Assembly: GCA_944390575.1 (NCBI GenBank)
Contig: CALXQJ010000014.1
Location: 1 to 54,679 of the forward strand
Length of the DNA: 54,679 nt
Reading direction: 5' to 3'
Source of the DNA: an uncultured Spirochaetota bacterium
GTDB lineage: Bacteria; Spirochaetota; Brachyspiria; Brachyspirales; Brachyspiraceae
Positions 12,190 to 34,714 of this stretch are shown here, in pieces (positions within the stretch are counted from its first letter, which is position 1; each line of letters starts with the position of its first letter). Made by a program: the position numbers and the translations under genes. The notes under the pieces were generated by a model. It had not been told where the DNA came from. It saw nothing but the letters and a program-made list of their open reading frames with translations, and did no database searches.

Positions 12190-13479
12190 ATGAGTAAAAA
12201 ACCATACATAGTAGTTCAAGATAATAATTATTCTAAAAATAATGATTTTTTTATCATAAAAGAAAGCTCTTATAAAAAATTAAATAAAAAAAATAATATT
12301 ATAAATATATTCATATACGATTTTCAAGAAAATAAAATATATGGATATTATGAAATAGATATTCTAAATGATGTTCTAAAAAAAGAAAATGAATTAATAT
12401 ATATCTCTATTAATAATAAAAATAAAAGAAGAAGAGGAATATATTATAAGATTGAAAATAAATATTCAAAATACTCAATCTTAGAAATAGAAAATGAAGA
12501 ATTTAATAAATTAGATAGAAAATTAAAAATAATAAATACAACTATATCTCAAACCTTTCTAAAATGCTCTATAGAAAATGAGTGTATAAAATATAATGCT
12601 ATAGAAACATATCCTTTTCTATATGTGAGTGAATATTCAAAGACATTTTCTATGCAGGCTTATGACAGTATATATAAAGAATACTTAAGATTATTAAAAA
12701 ACTCTAATAGTGAAAATAATAATATAGATAAATATTTAGAACTTGGTAGCTATTTAATGAATATGCTTTTTTCTGAAAAAGATTTTGTAGAGCATTTATT
12801 AAAAGATTTTAGAATAGTATATTTATATTTAGACAATATAACAAAAACTATACCTTGGAATATATTAGCATATAATAATAAATTTATATCAGAAAAAATA
12901 CTATTCTCATATACAAATACTATAAACACAAATAATAAAATGCCACATATAAACAATCATCATACAAAAATGGCTATTATATCAATACCTGATGAATATA
13001 TACAAAAAGATGATGAGGAAATAGAAATATTAAAAGAAATAAAAGAAATAGATTTATATAAAAAAGAACTTAATTATTTGGAATTTATTAAAATTTTAGA
13101 AAGCTATGATATAGTACATATTATAACACATGGATATGATAATGGAATTAAACTTGCTAATGACTATATTATAAATGGAATTAGTAAATTAGAAAATCCT
13201 CCATACTTAGTATTTATTAATAGCTGTAATAATGAAGAGCTTGATAATAAGTTAGTTGAATCATTACTTAATGCTGGTATTAACACTGTTATATCGGGTA
13301 TTGGATCTATTGCTGATGGATATTATAAACAGTTTATAGAATTTTTTTACCAATACTTATTACATAAAAATACGAGAATTAATACAGCTCAGGCTTATTA
13401 TTTTGCTTCTATACAAGTTCAAAATTTATATAATTGTTTTATTAGATATAGATTTAATGGGGTTGCTAGTTATGTTTAA
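12190..13479 (+). CDS. CHAT-domain (caspase-like) protease candidate
   Basis: 429 residues without signal peptide or membrane segment. The C-terminal third has the CHAT pattern: IVHIITHG (His314) followed by LVFINSC (Cys346), which fit the catalytic His-Cys dyad, then the glycine-rich VISGIGSIADG and a final segment that in CHAT proteins reads F...L..G....A. The N-terminal two thirds are Lys/Asn rich and match nothing I know; there are no obvious TPR repeats. It overlaps the lipoprotein amidase by 8 bp, so the two are translated together. A peptidase acting on an unknown partner is the likely role. It is AT-rich like its neighbours, with no sign of recent transfer. Confidence 0.72.
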   Translation: MSKKPYIVVQDNNYSKNNDFFIIKESSYKKLNKKNNIINIFIYDFQENKIYGYYEIDILNDVLKKENELIYISINNKNKRRRGIYYKIENKYSKYSILEIENEEFNKLDRKLKIINTTISQTFLKCSIENECIKYNAIETYPFLYVSEYSKTFSMQAYDSIYKEYLRLLKNSNSENNNIDKYLELGSYLMNMLFSEKDFVEHLLKDFRIVYLYLDNITKTIPWNILAYNNKFISEKILFSYTNTINTNNKMPHINNHHTKMAIISIPDEYIQKDDEEIEILKEIKEIDLYKKELNYLEFIKILESYDIVHIITHGYDNGIKLANDYIINGISKLENPPYLVFINSCNNEELDNKLVESLLNAGINTVISGIGSIADGYYKQFIEFFYQYLLHKNTRINTAQAYYFASIQVQNLYNCFIRYRFNGVASYV

Positions 13480-14613: not shown

Positions 14614-16368
14614 TTAATTATTTACCCACCATTTTTTAGATAGGTCTTGCTTACTTCTATACTCTAAAAGACTACTTCTTATACTATTTATATCAAAACC
14701 TCTATTTATATTTTTAAAAGATACAGGAGAAGATGATGATGAATCATAGCTATTTAAAAGAGCTATAATTTCTGTATTTCCATTAGAAACAGCAATATCC
14801 ATAGGTGTTTTACCTTTTTTATTCTTAATAGTAAGTAATGTATTATCTTTATCTATTAAGTATTTAATTAATTTAGAATCAGCATTTGCATTAATAGCAT
14901 GATGAAGAGGAGTATTTCCTATTGTATTTTTTGCCTTTAAATCAGACTTATACTCTGTAAGTAATACAACTGTAGAATATAAATTATTAGAAGCAGCCCA
15001 ATGTAATGGTGTTTCAAGTCCAAAAGTAGTTCTATCATCATCACGAACATTTACTAATCTTTTATCTCTATTCAAAAGAACTCGAACAACATCATCTCTA
15101 CCATTTGCAGAAGCAATATGAATAGCCTCAGCACCATCTACAGAGTCTTTAGCATATAAATTAGCACCAGAATCTATAAGAATCTCAACAGCCTCAACAT
15201 TACCAATAAGAGATGCTAAAAGTAAAGGAGTATACTCTCCAACAAACCAATTATAATCAACTAAATAAGCATCCTTATTTAATTTGATTTCTTTATCTAT
15301 ATTCTTTTGCTCTAATAACATCTTTAGAATATCTATATTATCATTTAATACAGCCAAATGTAGAGGAGAGTATCCTTCTTCATATTTAAAATTTGCACTA
15401 ATACCTTCTCTTAGTAAATTATTAACTGCTATTATATCATTATTACTAATAGCAACTAAAAGTTCTAATTGCTTATCTGTCAAATTTACTTCATCATCTG
15501 ATGATGTATTTTTATCATCTATTTGAGTATTAGATAAAGTAATAGTATTTTCATCTATAACTTCTGTAATATTTTCATTAGTAGTAGTGCTTAAACTATC
15601 TAAAGCTAAAACATTCATAATCTCTTCATTTTTTGCATAATAAGCAGGGGTACTATCATCTTTTGTTTTAGCCTCTTTATTAGCACCAGAATCTAATAAA
15701 GCATTAACAGAGTCTAATGAGGCAAAAGCAGATGCATAATGTAAAGCAGTCCAATTATCAACATCAACAGCTTCTATATCAGCTCCATTTGCAATTAAAA
15801 GCTTAATAGTTTCTGTTTTATCTTTCATAGCAGCCCAATGTAAAGGTGTATTTCCCTTATCATCTTTTAAGTTAATAAGAGTAGGATCTTTTTTTAATAA
15901 TGAAGCTATAACATCATTTCTACCATTGGCAGAAGCTAAATGTATAGACATTCCTCCATCAATAGAATCTTTAGCTTTTACATCTGCATTATTTTCAATT
16001 AGAATATTAACAATTTTATCATTACCTAAAAATGATGAAAGTATTAAAGGAGTAGCACCACCTAAATACCATCCATTAACATTAACTTTCATATCTAATT
16101 TAGAGTCTACATTTATATTTGTATATTTTAATAATTCTAAAACAGTATTTACATCCTCATTATAAACTGCTCTATGAAGTGGAGTATAGCCTTCATCATC
16201 TAATACATTAATATTAATATTTGTTGAGTTTTTTAATAGAGATGATACATTTTGAGAATCTTTATTTTCTATTGATATAAATAAAGATTTTTCATCATCT
16301 GTTAATGCAAATAAGTTTAGTGTTGTAAAAAAAATTGATTGTAATAATATATACTTAATATATTTCAC
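14614..16368 (-). CDS. Secreted ankyrin-repeat protein, internally duplicated
   Basis: 584 residues with an N-terminal signal peptide (residues 1-21, ending near LFA) and no lipobox, so it is probably periplasmic or exported. Ankyrin repeats of the type G.TPLH.A...N....V..LL..GA fill residues about 55-245 and again 325-545. The two halves match unit by unit: each has a YTPLL/ATPLI repeat after a long insert, then KDS.DG....HLASANGR.DV, then a PLHWAA repeat. The linker (about 250-320) is acidic and Thr/Asn rich. This shows duplication of a whole ankyrin block. Partner and function are unknown. Monocistronic. Confidence 0.93.
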   Translation of the reverse strand: MKYIKYILLQSIFFTTLNLFALTDDEKSLFISIENKDSQNVSSLLKNSTNININVLDDEGYTPLHRAVYNEDVNTVLELLKYTNINVDSKLDMKVNVNGWYLGGATPLILSSFLGNDKIVNILIENNADVKAKDSIDGGMSIHLASANGRNDVIASLLKKDPTLINLKDDKGNTPLHWAAMKDKTETIKLLIANGADIEAVDVDNWTALHYASAFASLDSVNALLDSGANKEAKTKDDSTPAYYAKNEEIMNVLALDSLSTTTNENITEVIDENTITLSNTQIDDKNTSSDDEVNLTDKQLELLVAISNNDIIAVNNLLREGISANFKYEEGYSPLHLAVLNDNIDILKMLLEQKNIDKEIKLNKDAYLVDYNWFVGEYTPLLLASLIGNVEAVEILIDSGANLYAKDSVDGAEAIHIASANGRDDVVRVLLNRDKRLVNVRDDDRTTFGLETPLHWAASNNLYSTVVLLTEYKSDLKAKNTIGNTPLHHAINANADSKLIKYLIDKDNTLLTIKNKKGKTPMDIAVSNGNTEIIALLNSYDSSSSSPVSFKNINRGFDINSIRSSLLEYRSKQDLSKKWWVNN

Positions 16369-17474: not shown

Positions 17475-17962
17475 AATTATAATATCCTAATAATGTTGAT
17501 ATATTGTTTATAAGTATATTATTTTTATTAACATTATAAACAAATTTTAATAATTAAAAAAAATTGAATTTATTAATTAAATTTATAGAATTTTATAATT
17601 CTATATTTAGTTGATATAAAATAAATTATAAACATATTATCAATATAAAAATTTCATTTTCTTCTTATATGGAAATTATTATCAACATATCAACAGATTA
17701 ATAATAATATAAATTTTTTAAAATTTAAATAATAAAATTTATTATTTAATAAACTCATAATTTGGTATTATAAAAAATTGAAGTTTATATTATAAATTCA
17801 TTTTATAATTATAATGTTGATAACTTGTTTATAATGTTGATAACTTTTAATATATGTTTATATTTTAAATTTCTTTTATAAATTTAAAATATAAATTCAA
17901 AATTTGAATTCTAAAAAATAGATTTTTTAATAAAAATATGATATATTGTTAACATAATAATT
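17475..17962. other. Gene-free AT-rich gap with DnaA-box-like repeats (candidate oriC)
   Basis: 488 bp between divergent genes, nearly all A/T. Three exact copies of TTATCAACA occur: + strand at 17679-17687, minus strand at 17815-17823 and 17835-17843 (the last two exactly 20 bp apart). One-mismatch copies lie at 17494-17502 and 17687-17695. A second motif, TTGTTTATAA or its reverse, occurs at 17504-17513, 17534-17543 and 17825-17834. TTATCAACA differs from the E. coli DnaA box TTATCCACA at one base. With the parS-like sites 3 kb away and gene orientation biased outwards, this could be the replication origin. No dnaA or dnaN is in the window. I see no coding frame here. Confidence 0.5.
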
Positions 17963-18724
17963 ATGAAAAAAGAATTCTATATAAATGAAAAAACAAATGA
18001 TTTAATATCAAATCTAATATATGATATTCAAAATTATAATATAACAATAAGCTCATATATAAAAAATATTGAAAAACTTATAGAAGAAAAATTAGATAAT
18101 AAAAATATAAAAGAAAGTAAAGAATATATTAATTCTATAATAAGACAATCATTTCTAATAGAAAAAACTGTAAAATCTTTTAATGAATTTTCAAATATAA
18201 ACTCTTCAGGTTTAGTTCTAAATAAAATATTAGATAATATAAATGATATAATTAATGATGTTATTAATGATTTTAAACCTCTTTTATTATCTAAAAAAAT
18301 AAAAATTTTAAAAGAACAAGATGATGAGATACTCTCTTTAATAGATAAAATAAAAATAAAAAATGCTATTTCTAATATATTTGTTTTTATATTTAATTAT
18401 TTAAAAGTAAATAGTATTTTAGATATTAAATATAGTATAATTAATTACAGTGAGGAAGAGTTTATATTTAGTGTAGGTTCTGAGAGAAGTAATTTAATTA
18501 ATAAATATGTATCTATTAGTATAAGTTTTTTATCTAATAATATTCCAGAAGAACTTAGAAAAAAACTCCTTAAAAAGGCTATTATATATTGTAGTGATAT
18601 TAATTTTAATAATTTATATTTATATTCATCATATAATATAATAAAGAAACATTTAGGAGATATGTGGATTGATAAGGTTGGGAGTAAAAATAGAATAACA
18701 GTACTTCTTCCTATTGAAAAGTAA
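17963..18724 (+). CDS. Histidine-kinase-like protein lacking clear catalytic boxes
   Basis: 253 residues, no membrane segment. Residues about 10-85 form a helical pair like a dimerisation domain (SFLIEKTVKSFNEFSNIN), and residues about 110-250 resemble a kinase ATPase fold, ending in YSSYNIIKKHLGDMWID...NRITVLLPI, which is the usual end of that domain. I cannot find an HExxN phospho-acceptor, or DxGxG and GTG loops; these positions are degenerate. It may be a scaffold or a highly diverged kinase. It shares a strand with the LuxR-type regulator 12 bp downstream, so the two may form one signalling unit. Confidence 0.6.
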   Translation: MKKEFYINEKTNDLISNLIYDIQNYNITISSYIKNIEKLIEEKLDNKNIKESKEYINSIIRQSFLIEKTVKSFNEFSNINSSGLVLNKILDNINDIINDVINDFKPLLLSKKIKILKEQDDEILSLIDKIKIKNAISNIFVFIFNYLKVNSILDIKYSIINYSEEEFIFSVGSERSNLINKYVSISISFLSNNIPEELRKKLLKKAIIYCSDINFNNLYLYSSYNIIKKHLGDMWIDKVGSKNRITVLLPIEK

Positions 18725-18736
18725 AATTATATTTTT

Positions 18737-19675
18737 ATGAATCAGATATTTGGGATTTTTTTATTATTATCATATCTATTTGCTTTTATAATAGGTTTCT
18801 CTTCTATACTTTATAGTATTATTTATTATTTTTTGGAGAGAGTAATTTGGCTTAAGTATTATATAGTTTTTTTATTTACTTTTGGAATTTTACTTATTAT
18901 TAGATCATTAAGACTTTTTAGTTTCTTTATTTTGCCTAATTTTATAGATAGTATAGTATTTGATACACTTTACTATTTTACATTTAGTATTTCTATGTCT
19001 ATTTTATTTTATTTTATACCTTCTTTTTTATATAGATTTTTATCTATAAATTGGACTACTGTTCATAATATCATTTATTTATTATTATCTGTAATATTCT
19101 TTATTATTAGTATATTTGGTATACTTTTTAATTTTAATTTTTATATATTTGCTAATTTTTTATTTTTCTTAGGTATTATTTATTTCTTTACTATTACAGT
19201 ATTAAATTATAATAATATAGAAGATAATACTATTAAGATAATAGTAAGAATACTTGGTATTGCTACTATTATTATACTTCCTGTATTAATTTATTATATA
19301 ATTAGATTTAGAGGTAATATTTCAGATATAGTATCTATGGATATAATATTGCTATTATATTATATTTGGTGGAACTTGATAATACTTTCATATTTTGTTT
19401 GGTATTTTATAAGTATAATAAAGTCAAGAAATATATTTTATTCTACAGATTCTAATATTACGAATTCTGATTCTTTAGGTTCTAATAATAAAGAAAGTTT
19501 TAACTTAACTAAAAGAGAAAATGAGATATTGTCTTATTTACTTTCAGGTAAAACAAACAAAGAAATATCTCTAATATTGGATATATCATTAAATACAGTT
19601 AATAATCATGTAGCTAATATTTATGATAAATCTGGTGTTAAGAATAGGGTAGAGTTGGTAAATAAGTTTAAGTGA
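18737..19675 (+). CDS. Membrane-anchored LuxR-type transcription regulator
   Basis: 312 residues. The first 235 or so are hydrophobic with about seven membrane segments, and the last 60 are a LuxR-type helix-turn-helix: LTKRENEILSYLLSGKTNKE then ISLILDISLNTVNNHVANIY and KSGVKNRVELV. This fits a membrane protein that senses a signal and holds its DNA-binding domain at the membrane. It follows the kinase-like gene by 12 bp. Target genes are unknown. Confidence 0.85.
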   Translation: MNQIFGIFLLLSYLFAFIIGFSSILYSIIYYFLERVIWLKYYIVFLFTFGILLIIRSLRLFSFFILPNFIDSIVFDTLYYFTFSISMSILFYFIPSFLYRFLSINWTTVHNIIYLLLSVIFFIISIFGILFNFNFYIFANFLFFLGIIYFFTITVLNYNNIEDNTIKIIVRILGIATIIILPVLIYYIIRFRGNISDIVSMDIILLLYYIWWNLIILSYFVWYFISIIKSRNIFYSTDSNITNSDSLGSNNKESFNLTKRENEILSYLLSGKTNKEISLILDISLNTVNNHVANIYDKSGVKNRVELVNKFK

Positions 19676-19794
19676 GTTAATATAATAAAGTTAAAATAAC
19701 TTATTCTATTATTACTTGTTTATGATAACTTGTTATTTAAAAATAGTAAGCAAATATATTCTTACTATTTTCGCTTTTTTTCGAATTATAATGA

Positions 19795-20091
19795 TTATTC
19801 TTCAGTAGGAATAGAATCAATAATTGAATTAGCTAAAGAGTTTAGAACCTCTTCTCTTAGAGCACCATCTTTCATATATAGCTCTAATCTTTGCTTAGCC
19901 TCAGCAACCTTATCTTCACGAATATCAGGTGCATTTTTGATAATAGATATTAGTTTTTCATTTTGTAAAGCAGTCATAGACTCATTAGATATTTCTATTC
20001 TGTCAGAACCTACTTTAGACGCTTTATCATTATATCTAATATTTGATTTTGGCTGTATATTAGATGTGCCGCCTATTTTATCGATTGTCAT
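19795..20091 (-). CDS. flgM: Anti-sigma-28 factor FlgM
   Basis: 98 residues. MTIDKIGG near the N-terminus, then a disordered stretch with the DRIEISNES segment, and a helical C-terminal half (RLELYMKDGALREEVLNSLA) that binds the flagellar sigma factor FliA, as in other FlgM proteins. It would hold back late flagellar genes until the hook is finished. Its start overlaps the stop of rsmI by 4 bp (ATGA), so the two are translationally coupled. Confidence 0.9.
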   Translation of the reverse strand: MTIDKIGGTSNIQPKSNIRYNDKASKVGSDRIEISNESMTALQNEKLISIIKNAPDIREDKVAEAKQRLELYMKDGALREEVLNSLANSIIDSIPTEE

Positions 20092-20882
20092 AGTATGACT
20101 CCTTGCTTAAATACATTTTCGGCATTGGTTTTGCATACTTTAGATACTCTATTATCAATAATTATGCAATATTCTCCTTTTAGAATTATATTATTATTTT
20201 GAAAAAAATCAAGAATATTTTTAGCATTATTTCTTATAATTTGTTCAAATTTCTTAGTTAATTCTCGTCCTAGTATGATTTGAGTATTTTCACCAAATAT
20301 TTCATTTATATCTTCTATACAATTTACTATTCTATGAACTGATTCATATAATACTATAATATTTTTTTCATTTTCTTTTAGACTGCTTAATTGATTTTTT
20401 CTTTTTTGTTTTTTATTAGATAGAAATCCTACAAATAGAGTGTCGCCAGATATACCTGAGGCAGATAGTAGAGTAGTGAAAGCTGATATACCTCCTATTG
20501 GTATAACTTTTATATTATTTTCTATAGCCTTTTTTATTATTCCAACACCTGGGTCACTAATGCAAGGAGTACCTGCGTCAGACACTAAAGCTACAGATTT
20601 TCCGCTTATTATTTGTTTTATATATTCATTTGTTTTACTTTCTGAAGAATGGCTATGGTATGAATATATTTGTTTTTTTATGTTGTAGTGATTTAATAAT
20701 TTTATTGTTACTCTTGTATCTTCTGCTAATATGAAATCTACAGAGTTTAGAATTTTTATAGCTCTTATTGTTATATCTTCCAAATTTCCAATAGGTGTTG
20801 CTATTACATATATAGCATTATTTTCTATTTTTTCTTCTTTTGTGATTATATTTTGAATAGAGTTTATATAGCTTTCTGACAT
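20088..20882 (-). CDS. rsmI: 16S rRNA 2'-O-methyltransferase RsmI
   Basis: 264 residues. Methylates C1402 of 16S rRNA with S-adenosylmethionine. Family marks: YVIATPIGNLEDITIRAI near residue 25, AEDTRVTIKLLNHY, SYHSHSS, the LVSDAGTPCISDPG SAM loop, and FLSNKKQKRKNQL. The two parS-like sites lie directly upstream of its start. Confidence 0.96.
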   Translation of the reverse strand: MSESYINSIQNIITKEEKIENNAIYVIATPIGNLEDITIRAIKILNSVDFILAEDTRVTIKLLNHYNIKKQIYSYHSHSSESKTNEYIKQIISGKSVALVSDAGTPCISDPGVGIIKKAIENNIKVIPIGGISAFTTLLSASGISGDTLFVGFLSNKKQKRKNQLSSLKENEKNIIVLYESVHRIVNCIEDINEIFGENTQIILGRELTKKFEQIIRNNAKNILDFFQNNNIILKGEYCIIIDNRVSKVCKTNAENVFKQGVIL

Positions 20883-32410: not shown

Positions 32411-34714
32411 TTAAAAAATCTTATATTCCATCATTTTATTTTTTATTATTATGTCTATATCGTTTTTATTTAACTTAATTGTTTTATTATTCTTATTATA
32501 TATATTTAATAGTATTTGTGAGAGTGATGATATTTCTGATTTTGTCAGATTTGTAAAAGCATATCTTAAGTGTGGCAATATTTTTAGAAACTTATCTTCA
32601 TCTATATTTTTTATTATTTTGTCTATACTATTTATTATTTCATTATTTATAAATATTATATCTTTTGATATTAATAGTATACCACTAATAAAGTATGATA
32701 TATCTTCTAAAGTTTGAAGGAAGTTTAATATTGTATTTGTAAATTGTTCTATTGTTATAATTTTTTCTTTATATTGTATTGACAGACATATTGCATATAT
32801 ATGTGATGATCCGAATGTATTTTTTGTAATTTCATTTATTTTTTTTAAAAATAGTTTTTTATATTCTATATACTCAGAATTTGATAATATATTTTGATAT
32901 ATATCTTTTATGTTATGAGATATTTTTGATATACTCTCTTCATCTATATGTTTTGTCTTTTCTATATTATCAATTATATTTTTTATAGCTATCTCTATTA
33001 TATTATTTATTATTTTTAATGAGTTTTGATTATTACTTTCATATTCTAAGTTAAATTCTATTATATTTTTTGCATATATTAAATTATTTATACAGTTAAA
33101 TATACTTTCAAAGTTATTATCATTTATAATAATATTTTCTATTTTTTTATATTCTATATCTGTGAATATATTATATGAAATATTCATCAAGAGAATTTCT
33201 ATTATAAGAATTGATATTTCATTAGATATTTTAATATTATTAATTTTTTCTTTTATTATAGCTATAACAATATCATCTATAGATATACCATAAATAGATT
33301 TTTCTATAAGAAGAGCTTCCACATTTGTACTATACTCATACTGCCAAATTTCTCTTGCTAAATTTCTATTTTCTTTTTTTATATAATTGGTGGCACTTAT
33401 AATATTGCAGAATTTTATATTTATAAATTTTATTTTATGAAAAAAAATACTTTTATAATAATGATTTTTATCTTTTAATATTTCTAATATAGTTTCTATT
33501 TTTTCTTTTTTATTAGTTTTAATTTTAAATTTTTTACATAGCTCTCTAAATTCTATTAAAACAGGAGGTACTATACTTGTAGATGATATACTACCAGTTT
33601 TTATTCCTGAGAGTATTTTGTATATACCATAATTAATTTCTAAGCCTTTTACAAATGAGTTTTTTATTGAATCTATAAGCTCATATACACCTATAGATTT
33701 TTTACCTCTAATTTTTGATAAACTATCAGCCATATAATATGCATTAACAGAGTCTACTATATTTATATTATAATGCTCTTTATAAAGATGAGATATTTTT
33801 ATTATGAAGTCTTTTACAGTATCATTATATACATTTTTATTATTTTTGCTTTTCTCTAATTTCTTCCAAACCTCATCATAAAAATATGGAAACTCTATAC
33901 CAGATTGATAACCACTTCTTTGATCTGCATCTTTAAATGAATATGGTATTAAATAGTGTGATATATTTTTTTTATCATAATTGTTTTCTAAGATATTATT
34001 AGTTTTTTTTATAATTTCTATTTTTTCTATTATACCATCTATATGAAAACTTCCAGCTATAACTAATACTTTATTATATTTTTCTTTAGCTTTTAGTATA
34101 TAGTGTGCCATAGTATATTCTCTATATGAGTTTTCTTTATCCTCTTTTTCTATCAAACGCATATAGTGTCCTAATGTGTACACACTTTCCATAAATTTAC
34201 GAGAGTCTTTGTATATACCATTAATCTCAAAATCTCTCTCCCAAAATTCATTAAAACTTCTAAGAGATGTTTTTTTTATAATAGATTTTATATATTCATT
34301 TATATTAAATTTATAATCATCACTATCATATAAAGAGTATATTTCTCTTTCTTTATTATTTTCTAAATCTATTAATTTTGAAAAAGGAGTATCTATAAAT
34401 AGTATGTCTATATTATTTTCTAATCCTATTTTTATAGCTTGATATTCTGGAGAATAACTTAAAAAAGGATAATAGCTTCTATATATTATATTATTCTTTT
34501 TATAGCTTGAGTATATACAAAAAGGGGGCTTTGTATCTTTTTCTATAAAATACTTAATTATATTATTACAATCGCTTGGCCCTTCTATGAGAATACAGTT
34601 AGGCTTAAAAGTTTCTATAATACTTTTTAAATGATATGAGCAAGCAGGTGAATGATGCCTTATTGGAAATAGTATAATATCATCTTTTATAAGTTCTTTT
34701 ACATTATTAAACAT
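32411..34714 (-). CDS. DUF5682 family protein
   Basis: 767 residues. The N-terminus has the family signature FPIRHHSPACSYHLKSIIE, followed by CILIEGPSDCN and, further on, YSPEYQAIKIGLENNIDILF then IDTP, VLVIAGSFHIDGI and a long helical C-terminal half. In the clusters I know, such proteins accompany a MoxR-type ATPase and a VWA-domain protein; none is near here. Role unknown; the N-terminal fold recalls TraB/ChaN-like domains. It is AT-extreme, with Ile, Asn and Lys making up much of the protein. Confidence 0.8.
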   Translation of the reverse strand: MFNNVKELIKDDIILFPIRHHSPACSYHLKSIIETFKPNCILIEGPSDCNNIIKYFIEKDTKPPFCIYSSYKKNNIIYRSYYPFLSYSPEYQAIKIGLENNIDILFIDTPFSKLIDLENNKEREIYSLYDSDDYKFNINEYIKSIIKKTSLRSFNEFWERDFEINGIYKDSRKFMESVYTLGHYMRLIEKEDKENSYREYTMAHYILKAKEKYNKVLVIAGSFHIDGIIEKIEIIKKTNNILENNYDKKNISHYLIPYSFKDADQRSGYQSGIEFPYFYDEVWKKLEKSKNNKNVYNDTVKDFIIKISHLYKEHYNINIVDSVNAYYMADSLSKIRGKKSIGVYELIDSIKNSFVKGLEINYGIYKILSGIKTGSISSTSIVPPVLIEFRELCKKFKIKTNKKEKIETILEILKDKNHYYKSIFFHKIKFINIKFCNIISATNYIKKENRNLAREIWQYEYSTNVEALLIEKSIYGISIDDIVIAIIKEKINNIKISNEISILIIEILLMNISYNIFTDIEYKKIENIIINDNNFESIFNCINNLIYAKNIIEFNLEYESNNQNSLKIINNIIEIAIKNIIDNIEKTKHIDEESISKISHNIKDIYQNILSNSEYIEYKKLFLKKINEITKNTFGSSHIYAICLSIQYKEKIITIEQFTNTILNFLQTLEDISYFISGILLISKDIIFINNEIINSIDKIIKNIDEDKFLKILPHLRYAFTNLTKSEISSLSQILLNIYNKNNKTIKLNKNDIDIIIKNKMMEYKIF

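What the first reader, a model, noticed from the sequence alone, without database searches (positions are those of the whole stretch)
17475..17962. Candidate chromosome origin: DnaA-box-like cluster in a 488-bp gene-free AT-rich gap
Three exact and two near TTATCAACA copies, two of them exactly 20 bp apart, plus a second repeated motif (TTGTTTATAA), between divergent genes. Left of it, about 11 kb of coding sequence is on the minus strand against 5 kb on plus; to the right about 22 kb is on plus against 12 kb on minus, so genes tend to point away. Small samples agree: 32701-32760 has 9 G to 3 C on the top strand in a minus-strand gene, and 12541-12600 has 9 C to 6 G in a plus-strand gene. dnaA is not adjacent.
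Basis: partly seen in the sequence, partly recalled or inferred. Interest (0 to 1): 0.7.

Follow-up and report, generated by a model that had tools for sequence, protein, structure and literature searches.

The report
Brachyspira chromosome replication origin, unlinked from dnaA
The 488-bp gap is almost certainly the place where this gut spirochaete (a Brachyspira relative) starts copying its chromosome: it carries an ordered set of initiator-binding sites and a strand-opening repeat that nearly every checked relative keeps at the same place, far from the initiator gene dnaA where early genome papers had put the origin.

Summary
The gap 17475-17962 (9.8% G+C) holds seven TTATMAACA DnaA boxes; 5000 dinucleotide shuffles of the gap never exceed three. 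The "second motif" TTGTTTATAA is the same box with one base changed. The array is conserved across the genus and in a sister genus. Its core, a DnaA-box pair, a 3-bp spacer and TAATAATAA facing an AT-rich stretch, has the layout of the known basal unwinding system. The core occurs exactly once per genome in 20 of 26 genus genomes, and in three more with 1-2 mismatches. In two complete relatives the sampled whole-chromosome GC-skew minimum falls at this locus, not at dnaA. That Brachyspira origins are unlinked to dnaA was already published (PMC3163572). Not found in the papers searched: the base-level anatomy; the lock to a conserved right-hand block (pseudo-histidine-kinase, LuxR-type regulator) while left neighbours vary; and all-adenine DnaA-trios together with changed trio-contact residues in DnaA (N187 to D, R202 to K, B. 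subtilis numbering). No experiment has been done.

The parts
17475..17962 (.). oriC: gene-free region, 9.8% G+C, whole array
   Evidence: aligned across 17 genus genomes and a sister genus
17494..17502 (-). near DnaA box TGTTGATAT (1 mismatch), left array
17505..17513 (-). DnaA box TGTTTATAA (TTATAAACA), left array
   Evidence: conserved position
17525..17533 (+). near DnaA box TTATTAACA, left array
   Evidence: aligned in relatives as TATTAACA
17534..17542 (+). DnaA box TTATAAACA, left array
17626..17634 (+). DnaA box TTATAAACA (TTATCAACA in most relatives), 53 bp upstream of the core box
   Evidence: 97th percentile of conservation
17637..17645 (+). near DnaA box TTATCAATA (1 mismatch), not kept in relatives
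17658..17670 (+). TTTCTTCTTATAT, conserved 13-mer of unknown role between boxes
   Evidence: near-identical in sister genus; single copy in window
17679..17687 (+). core DnaA box TTATCAACA (identical in all 17 aligned genomes)
17687..17695 (+). second core DnaA box ATATCAACA, overlapping the first by one base
17699..17713 (+). DnaA-trio-like repeat TAA TAA TAA TAT AAA; TAATAATAA identical in all 17 aligned genomes
   Evidence: fits the published BUS pattern (.A.){3,} with spacer 0-16 bp
17699..17814 (.). AT-rich stretch that includes and follows the trios, inferred unwinding element
   Evidence: sequence; position inferred, not the least stable stretch of the window
17815..17823 (-). DnaA box TGTTGATAA, right three-box array
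17826..17834 (-). DnaA box TGTTTATAA, right three-box array
17835..17843 (-). DnaA box TGTTGATAA, right three-box array; steps of 11 and 9 bp kept in genus and sister genus
   Evidence: the TGTTGATAA pair is unique in the 2.0-Mb genome
17894..17910 (.). palindrome AATTCAAAATTTGAATT; TGAATT words are enriched in relatives' origins
17963..18724 (+). conserved right neighbour: histidine-kinase-like protein without the catalytic motifs (pseudo-kinase)
18737..19675 (+). LuxR/GerE-type regulator, conserved second gene to the right

Best explanation
This is the chromosomal replication origin (oriC) of a Brachyspira-related bacterium. DnaA binds the left and right box arrays and the core pair TTATCAACA/ATATCAACA. 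From the core pair it extends as a filament onto the trinucleotide repeat TAATAATAA on the same strand, opens the AT-rich DNA between the core and the right array, and so lets the helicase load for two-way replication. Shown here: presence, single copy, conservation and order of the elements, and the skew minimum at the locus in two complete relatives. Inferred: DnaA binding, filament growth, where melting starts, and two-way forks in this organism.
For: Box cluster far above chance. Same order and spacing in the genus upstream of the same gene and in two sister-genus genomes. Core pattern exactly one per genome in 20 of 26 genus genomes, no reversed-pattern control hits, three more genomes with 1-2 mismatches. 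Sampled whole-chromosome GC-skew minimum at the locus in G007 (the 1866-1886-kb step against the gap at about 1886.1-1886.6 kb; maximum about half a genome away) and in G016 (about 1.60 Mb against the gap at about 1596.3-1597.2 kb). B. intermedia was published with base 1 set at its skew origin (PMC3163572); G012, whose length fits that chromosome, has its core at 11.3 kb. Core layout fits the published BUS definition (PMC8287927). The 18 kb around this genome's own dnaA hold a single box.
Against: No wet-lab evidence. This genome is in 19 contigs, so its own skew cannot be drawn. Local skew is noisy: in the window a near tie at 7.5 kb, in G012 a local minimum about 42 kb away that ties closely with the one at the core, in G007 the exact local minimum 9.7 kb away. 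G006 and G035 (the latter 99% complete) gave no match to core or neighbour gene. The AT-rich stretch is not the least stable in the window.
Confidence: 0.95

Rival explanations
1. A regulatory promoter region: the boxes are operator sites (for DnaA as a transcription factor, or for the LuxR-type regulator next door) controlling the divergent genes.
For: The gap lies between divergent genes, and a TATGTTATAAT-like promoter is conserved just before the right-hand gene.
Against: The left-hand gene differs between species while the array stays. The core is single-copy and matches an unwinding module with trinucleotides. Two complete relatives have the whole-chromosome skew minimum here. Regulation may coexist with origin function.
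Confidence: 0.03
2. The origin is at dnaA, as the first Brachyspira genome papers assumed, and this gap is a secondary DnaA-binding locus (titration or datA-like).
For: PMC2897892 and PMC2650404 placed oriC by dnaA.
Against: dnaA is not at the skew minimum in G007 or G016. One box in 18 kb around dnaA in this genome and 0-1 near dnaA in seven relatives. PMC3163572 and PMC3532143 reject the dnaA location.
Confidence: 0.015
3. A chance cluster in very AT-rich DNA.
For: The gap is 90% A+T.
Against: 0 of 5000 composition-matched shuffles reach the count, and the array is conserved across two genera.
Confidence: 0.003

Closest known systems
Brachyspira oriC predicted by GC skew and Ori-Finder (B. 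intermedia PMC3163572; B. pilosicoli B2904 PMC3532143)
   Same: Chromosomal origin not linked to dnaA; neighbouring genes differ between species.
   Different: Those papers give an approximate position. Here the element is placed to the base, its array is described, and the right-hand neighbours are found constant, so only the left side varies.
Basal unwinding system (BUS) of Bacillus subtilis incC and many bacterial origins (PMC6669920, PMC8287927, PMC10721633)
   Same: Tandem DnaA boxes, the first closer to consensus, short spacer, then at least three NAN trinucleotides on the same strand.
   Different: Box is TTATCAACA rather than TTATCCACA; spacer is A+T-rich; trios are all 5'-TAA-3' (3'-AAT-5') instead of mostly 3'-GAT-5'; DnaA trio-contact residues differ; dnaA is not adjacent.
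Borrelia burgdorferi oriC (between dnaA and dnaN, PMC9879097)
   Same: Spirochaete DnaA-dependent origin.
   Different: Borrelia's lies at dnaA-dnaN with two hypothesised boxes; this one is unlinked and has an extended ordered array.

Membership tests
bacterial oriC | cluster of DnaA boxes in a non-coding region | tested here: met
   7 TTATMAACA boxes in 488 bp, 0 of 5000 shuffles
bacterial oriC | minimum of cumulative GC skew | tested here: met
   met in relatives G007 and G016 from sampled sequence; not computable in this 19-contig genome
bacterial oriC | single copy and conserved within the genus | tested here: met
   two genus genomes without a match (G006, G035)
bacterial oriC | next to dnaA/dnaN (common, not required) | tested here: not met
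   dnaA on contig C7; unlinked in relatives too
bacterial oriC | replication starts there in growing cells | not testable with these tools
   needs marker-frequency data
basal unwinding system (BUS) | DnaA box with at most 2 mismatches to TTATCCACA (second box at most 4) | tested here: met
   TTATCAACA has 1 mismatch, ATATCAACA 2
basal unwinding system (BUS) | spacer of 0-16 bp to the first trio | tested here: met
   11 bp from the first box, 3 bp from the second
basal unwinding system (BUS) | three or more NAN trinucleotides | tested here: met
   TAA TAA TAA TAT AAA; TAATAATAA identical in all 17 aligned genomes
basal unwinding system (BUS) | preferred 3'-GAT-5' trio with DnaA residues N187 and R202 (a preference, not part of the definition) | tested here: not met
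   trios are 3'-AAT-5'; residues are D and K in this genome's and its genus's DnaA
basal unwinding system (BUS) | DnaA-dependent strand separation | not testable with these tools
   needs purified DnaA

The most novel reading that the evidence does not exclude
In Brachyspira and its sister genus the origin's unwinding module and DnaA have diverged together. The trios are all adenine (3'-AAT-5'), a form that impairs initiation when put into B. subtilis, while the DnaA residues that read the trios in B. subtilis (E183, N187, N196, R202) are S or G, D, K and K. The origin also stays locked to a pseudo-histidine-kinase and LuxR-type regulator pair that may regulate initiation.
Probability: 0.35. 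Interest if true: 0.6.

Novelty: new member of a known kind. Interest (0 to 1): 0.42.

Why it matters
It turns an approximate skew-based origin into a base-level map for the genus of gut spirochaetes that includes the agents of swine dysentery and intestinal spirochaetosis, and shows that the array and its right-hand neighbours have stayed together across two genera while the left side was rearranged. It offers a direct test of how DnaA reads DnaA-trios, because trio sequence and reading residues differ together from B. subtilis. It also adds sequence-level support against the dnaA-based origin of the first Brachyspira genome papers.

Tried and rejected
A single-protein scan of genome contigs found nothing; the alignment scan gave ten named loci. 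Duplex stability did not single out the gap and is not used as evidence. The structure of the neighbour protein is of low confidence (pLDDT 50), so its fold matches to histidine kinases are only supportive. The idea that TTGTTTATAA is an independent motif was rejected. Local skew alone was rejected as proof because gene orientation dominates it. A looser core pattern searched across the order gave one weak match in a third genus of the family that looks like chance.

Full report
Window 17475-17962 is a 488-bp non-coding gap of 9.8% G+C between divergent genes. It holds exact TTATCAACA copies at 17679(+), 17815(-) and 17835(-). The TTGTTTATAA motif contains TTATAAACA on the other strand, one base away from TTATCAACA, so both are one family. 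With TTATMAACA there are seven boxes; within one mismatch of TTATCAACA there are eleven. Dinucleotide shuffles of the gap average 0.12 TTATMAACA and never exceed three in 5000 trials. No 488-bp stretch of the window clear of the gap holds more than two. The tandem TGTTGATAA pair 20 bp apart occurs once in the 2.0-Mb genome.

Where it is. The window is a whole 54,679-bp contig of a 2.0-Mb, 19-contig assembly whose closest relatives are Brachyspira. dnaA is on another contig (C7), and the 18 kb around it hold a single box.

Conservation. Using the right-hand gene as anchor, it was found in 17 other genus genomes; the gaps of 17 genomes, this one included, were long enough to align. Boxes largely keep orientation and spacing: two plus-strand boxes 51-53 bp apart, then three minus-strand boxes in steps of 11 and 9 bp (one genome, L017, lacks the right part). 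The most conserved stretches are TTTCTTCTTATAT, TTATCAACATAT and TAATAATAA. The core pattern TTATCAACATATNAAC-N(0-6)-TAATAATAA occurs exactly once in 20 of 26 genus genomes, with no hits of the reversed control. Three more have it with 1-2 mismatches, and the regions I read keep the array and the gene. G037 has the gene with the three-box array at a contig end. G006 and G035 gave neither. In a sister genus (G038, G039) the orthologous gene has the same array, trios and 13-mer upstream.

Skew. G007 (2,555,556 bp, one contig) was sampled at about half its length. The cumulative GC-skew minimum falls at the 1866-1886-kb step; the core is at 1,886,373-1,886,401, and the maximum near 556-598 kb is about half a chromosome away. 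In G016 (3,241,804 bp) the sampled minimum is at about 1.60 Mb with the core at 1,596,623-1,596,651. dnaA is near base 1 in both and is not at the minimum. In G012 the core is 11.3 kb from base 1, and G009's record is opened within 2 bp of the core. The length of G012 fits B. intermedia, whose record was permuted to its skew origin (PMC3163572); that identification is mine, from memory of the length. Local skew is noisier.

Mechanism. The core meets the published definition of the basal unwinding system: a box with at most two mismatches, a second box, a spacer of 0-16 bp and three or more NAN trinucleotides (PMC8287927). In the window these are TTATCAACA, ATATCAACA, GAT, then TAA TAA TAA TAT AAA, running into AT-rich DNA that ends at the right three-box array. 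By analogy DnaA loads on the boxes, extends on the trio strand and opens the AT-rich DNA; that is inferred. The published B. subtilis structure has Asn187 and Glu183 contacting the middle adenine and Arg202 and Glu228 contacting the guanine, and all-3'-AA-5' trios impair initiation there (PMC10721633). Here the trios are 3'-AAT-5', and the DnaA residues aligned to 183/187/196/202 are S/D/K/K in nine genus genomes and G/D/K/K in the sister genus. Three more distant spirochaetes keep E183 and N187. Other members of the order and, by the alignment, Aquifex also differ at 187, so this is a correlation in one lineage, not proof.

Neighbourhood. To the right, the pseudo-kinase, a LuxR/GerE regulator, a FlgM-like ORF (just under Pfam's cut-off) and rsmI recur in the genus. 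To the left the genes differ: a malate/L-lactate dehydrogenase family gene here, argS, an EamA transporter or unrelated genes elsewhere. This agrees with published origin-centred rearrangements and refines the statement that oriC genes vary extensively between species (PMC3532143).

Known or new. That Brachyspira oriC is not at dnaA is published, against earlier dnaA-based placements. Searches for Brachyspira with DnaA box, oriC or replication origin found no base-level description, but databases such as DoriC could not be consulted and may list the same interval. I therefore file it as a new member of a known kind.

Noticed in passing
window 17963-18724 (+): Genus-wide histidine-kinase-like protein next to the origin whose conserved residues lack the phospho-acceptor histidine and the glycine-rich ATP motifs (relatives read NIIYDIQNYN, DNIPDDIKRKLF, NNLYLY): a likely pseudo-kinase. 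The predicted fold is of low confidence but matches histidine kinases.
   Followed up: partly
window 17658-17670: TTTCTTCTTATAT, nearly as conserved as the core DnaA box in genus and sister genus, with no known role.
   Followed up: partly
window 17894-17910 and relatives' gaps: TGAATT/AATTCA words are strongly enriched in most relatives' origins (up to 12 against about 1.7 expected), weaker in this window (4 against 1.4); may be sites of a second protein.
   Followed up: partly
window 19795-20091 (-): FlgM-like anti-sigma-28 ORF (24.4 bits against a cut-off of 25), antisense to the listed ORF 19730-20098, which is probably not a gene.
   Followed up: partly
window 14614-16368 (-): Ankyrin-repeat protein of 584 aa two genes left of the origin.
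   Followed up: no
window 12190-13479 (+): CHAT-domain (caspase-like) protein followed by an overlapping N-acetylmuramoyl-L-alanine amidase ORF.
   Followed up: no
L026 11131-12504: DnaA of this genome has DHSS where B. subtilis DnaA has DHTT in the DNA-binding domain, and changed trio-contact residues.
   Followed up: partly
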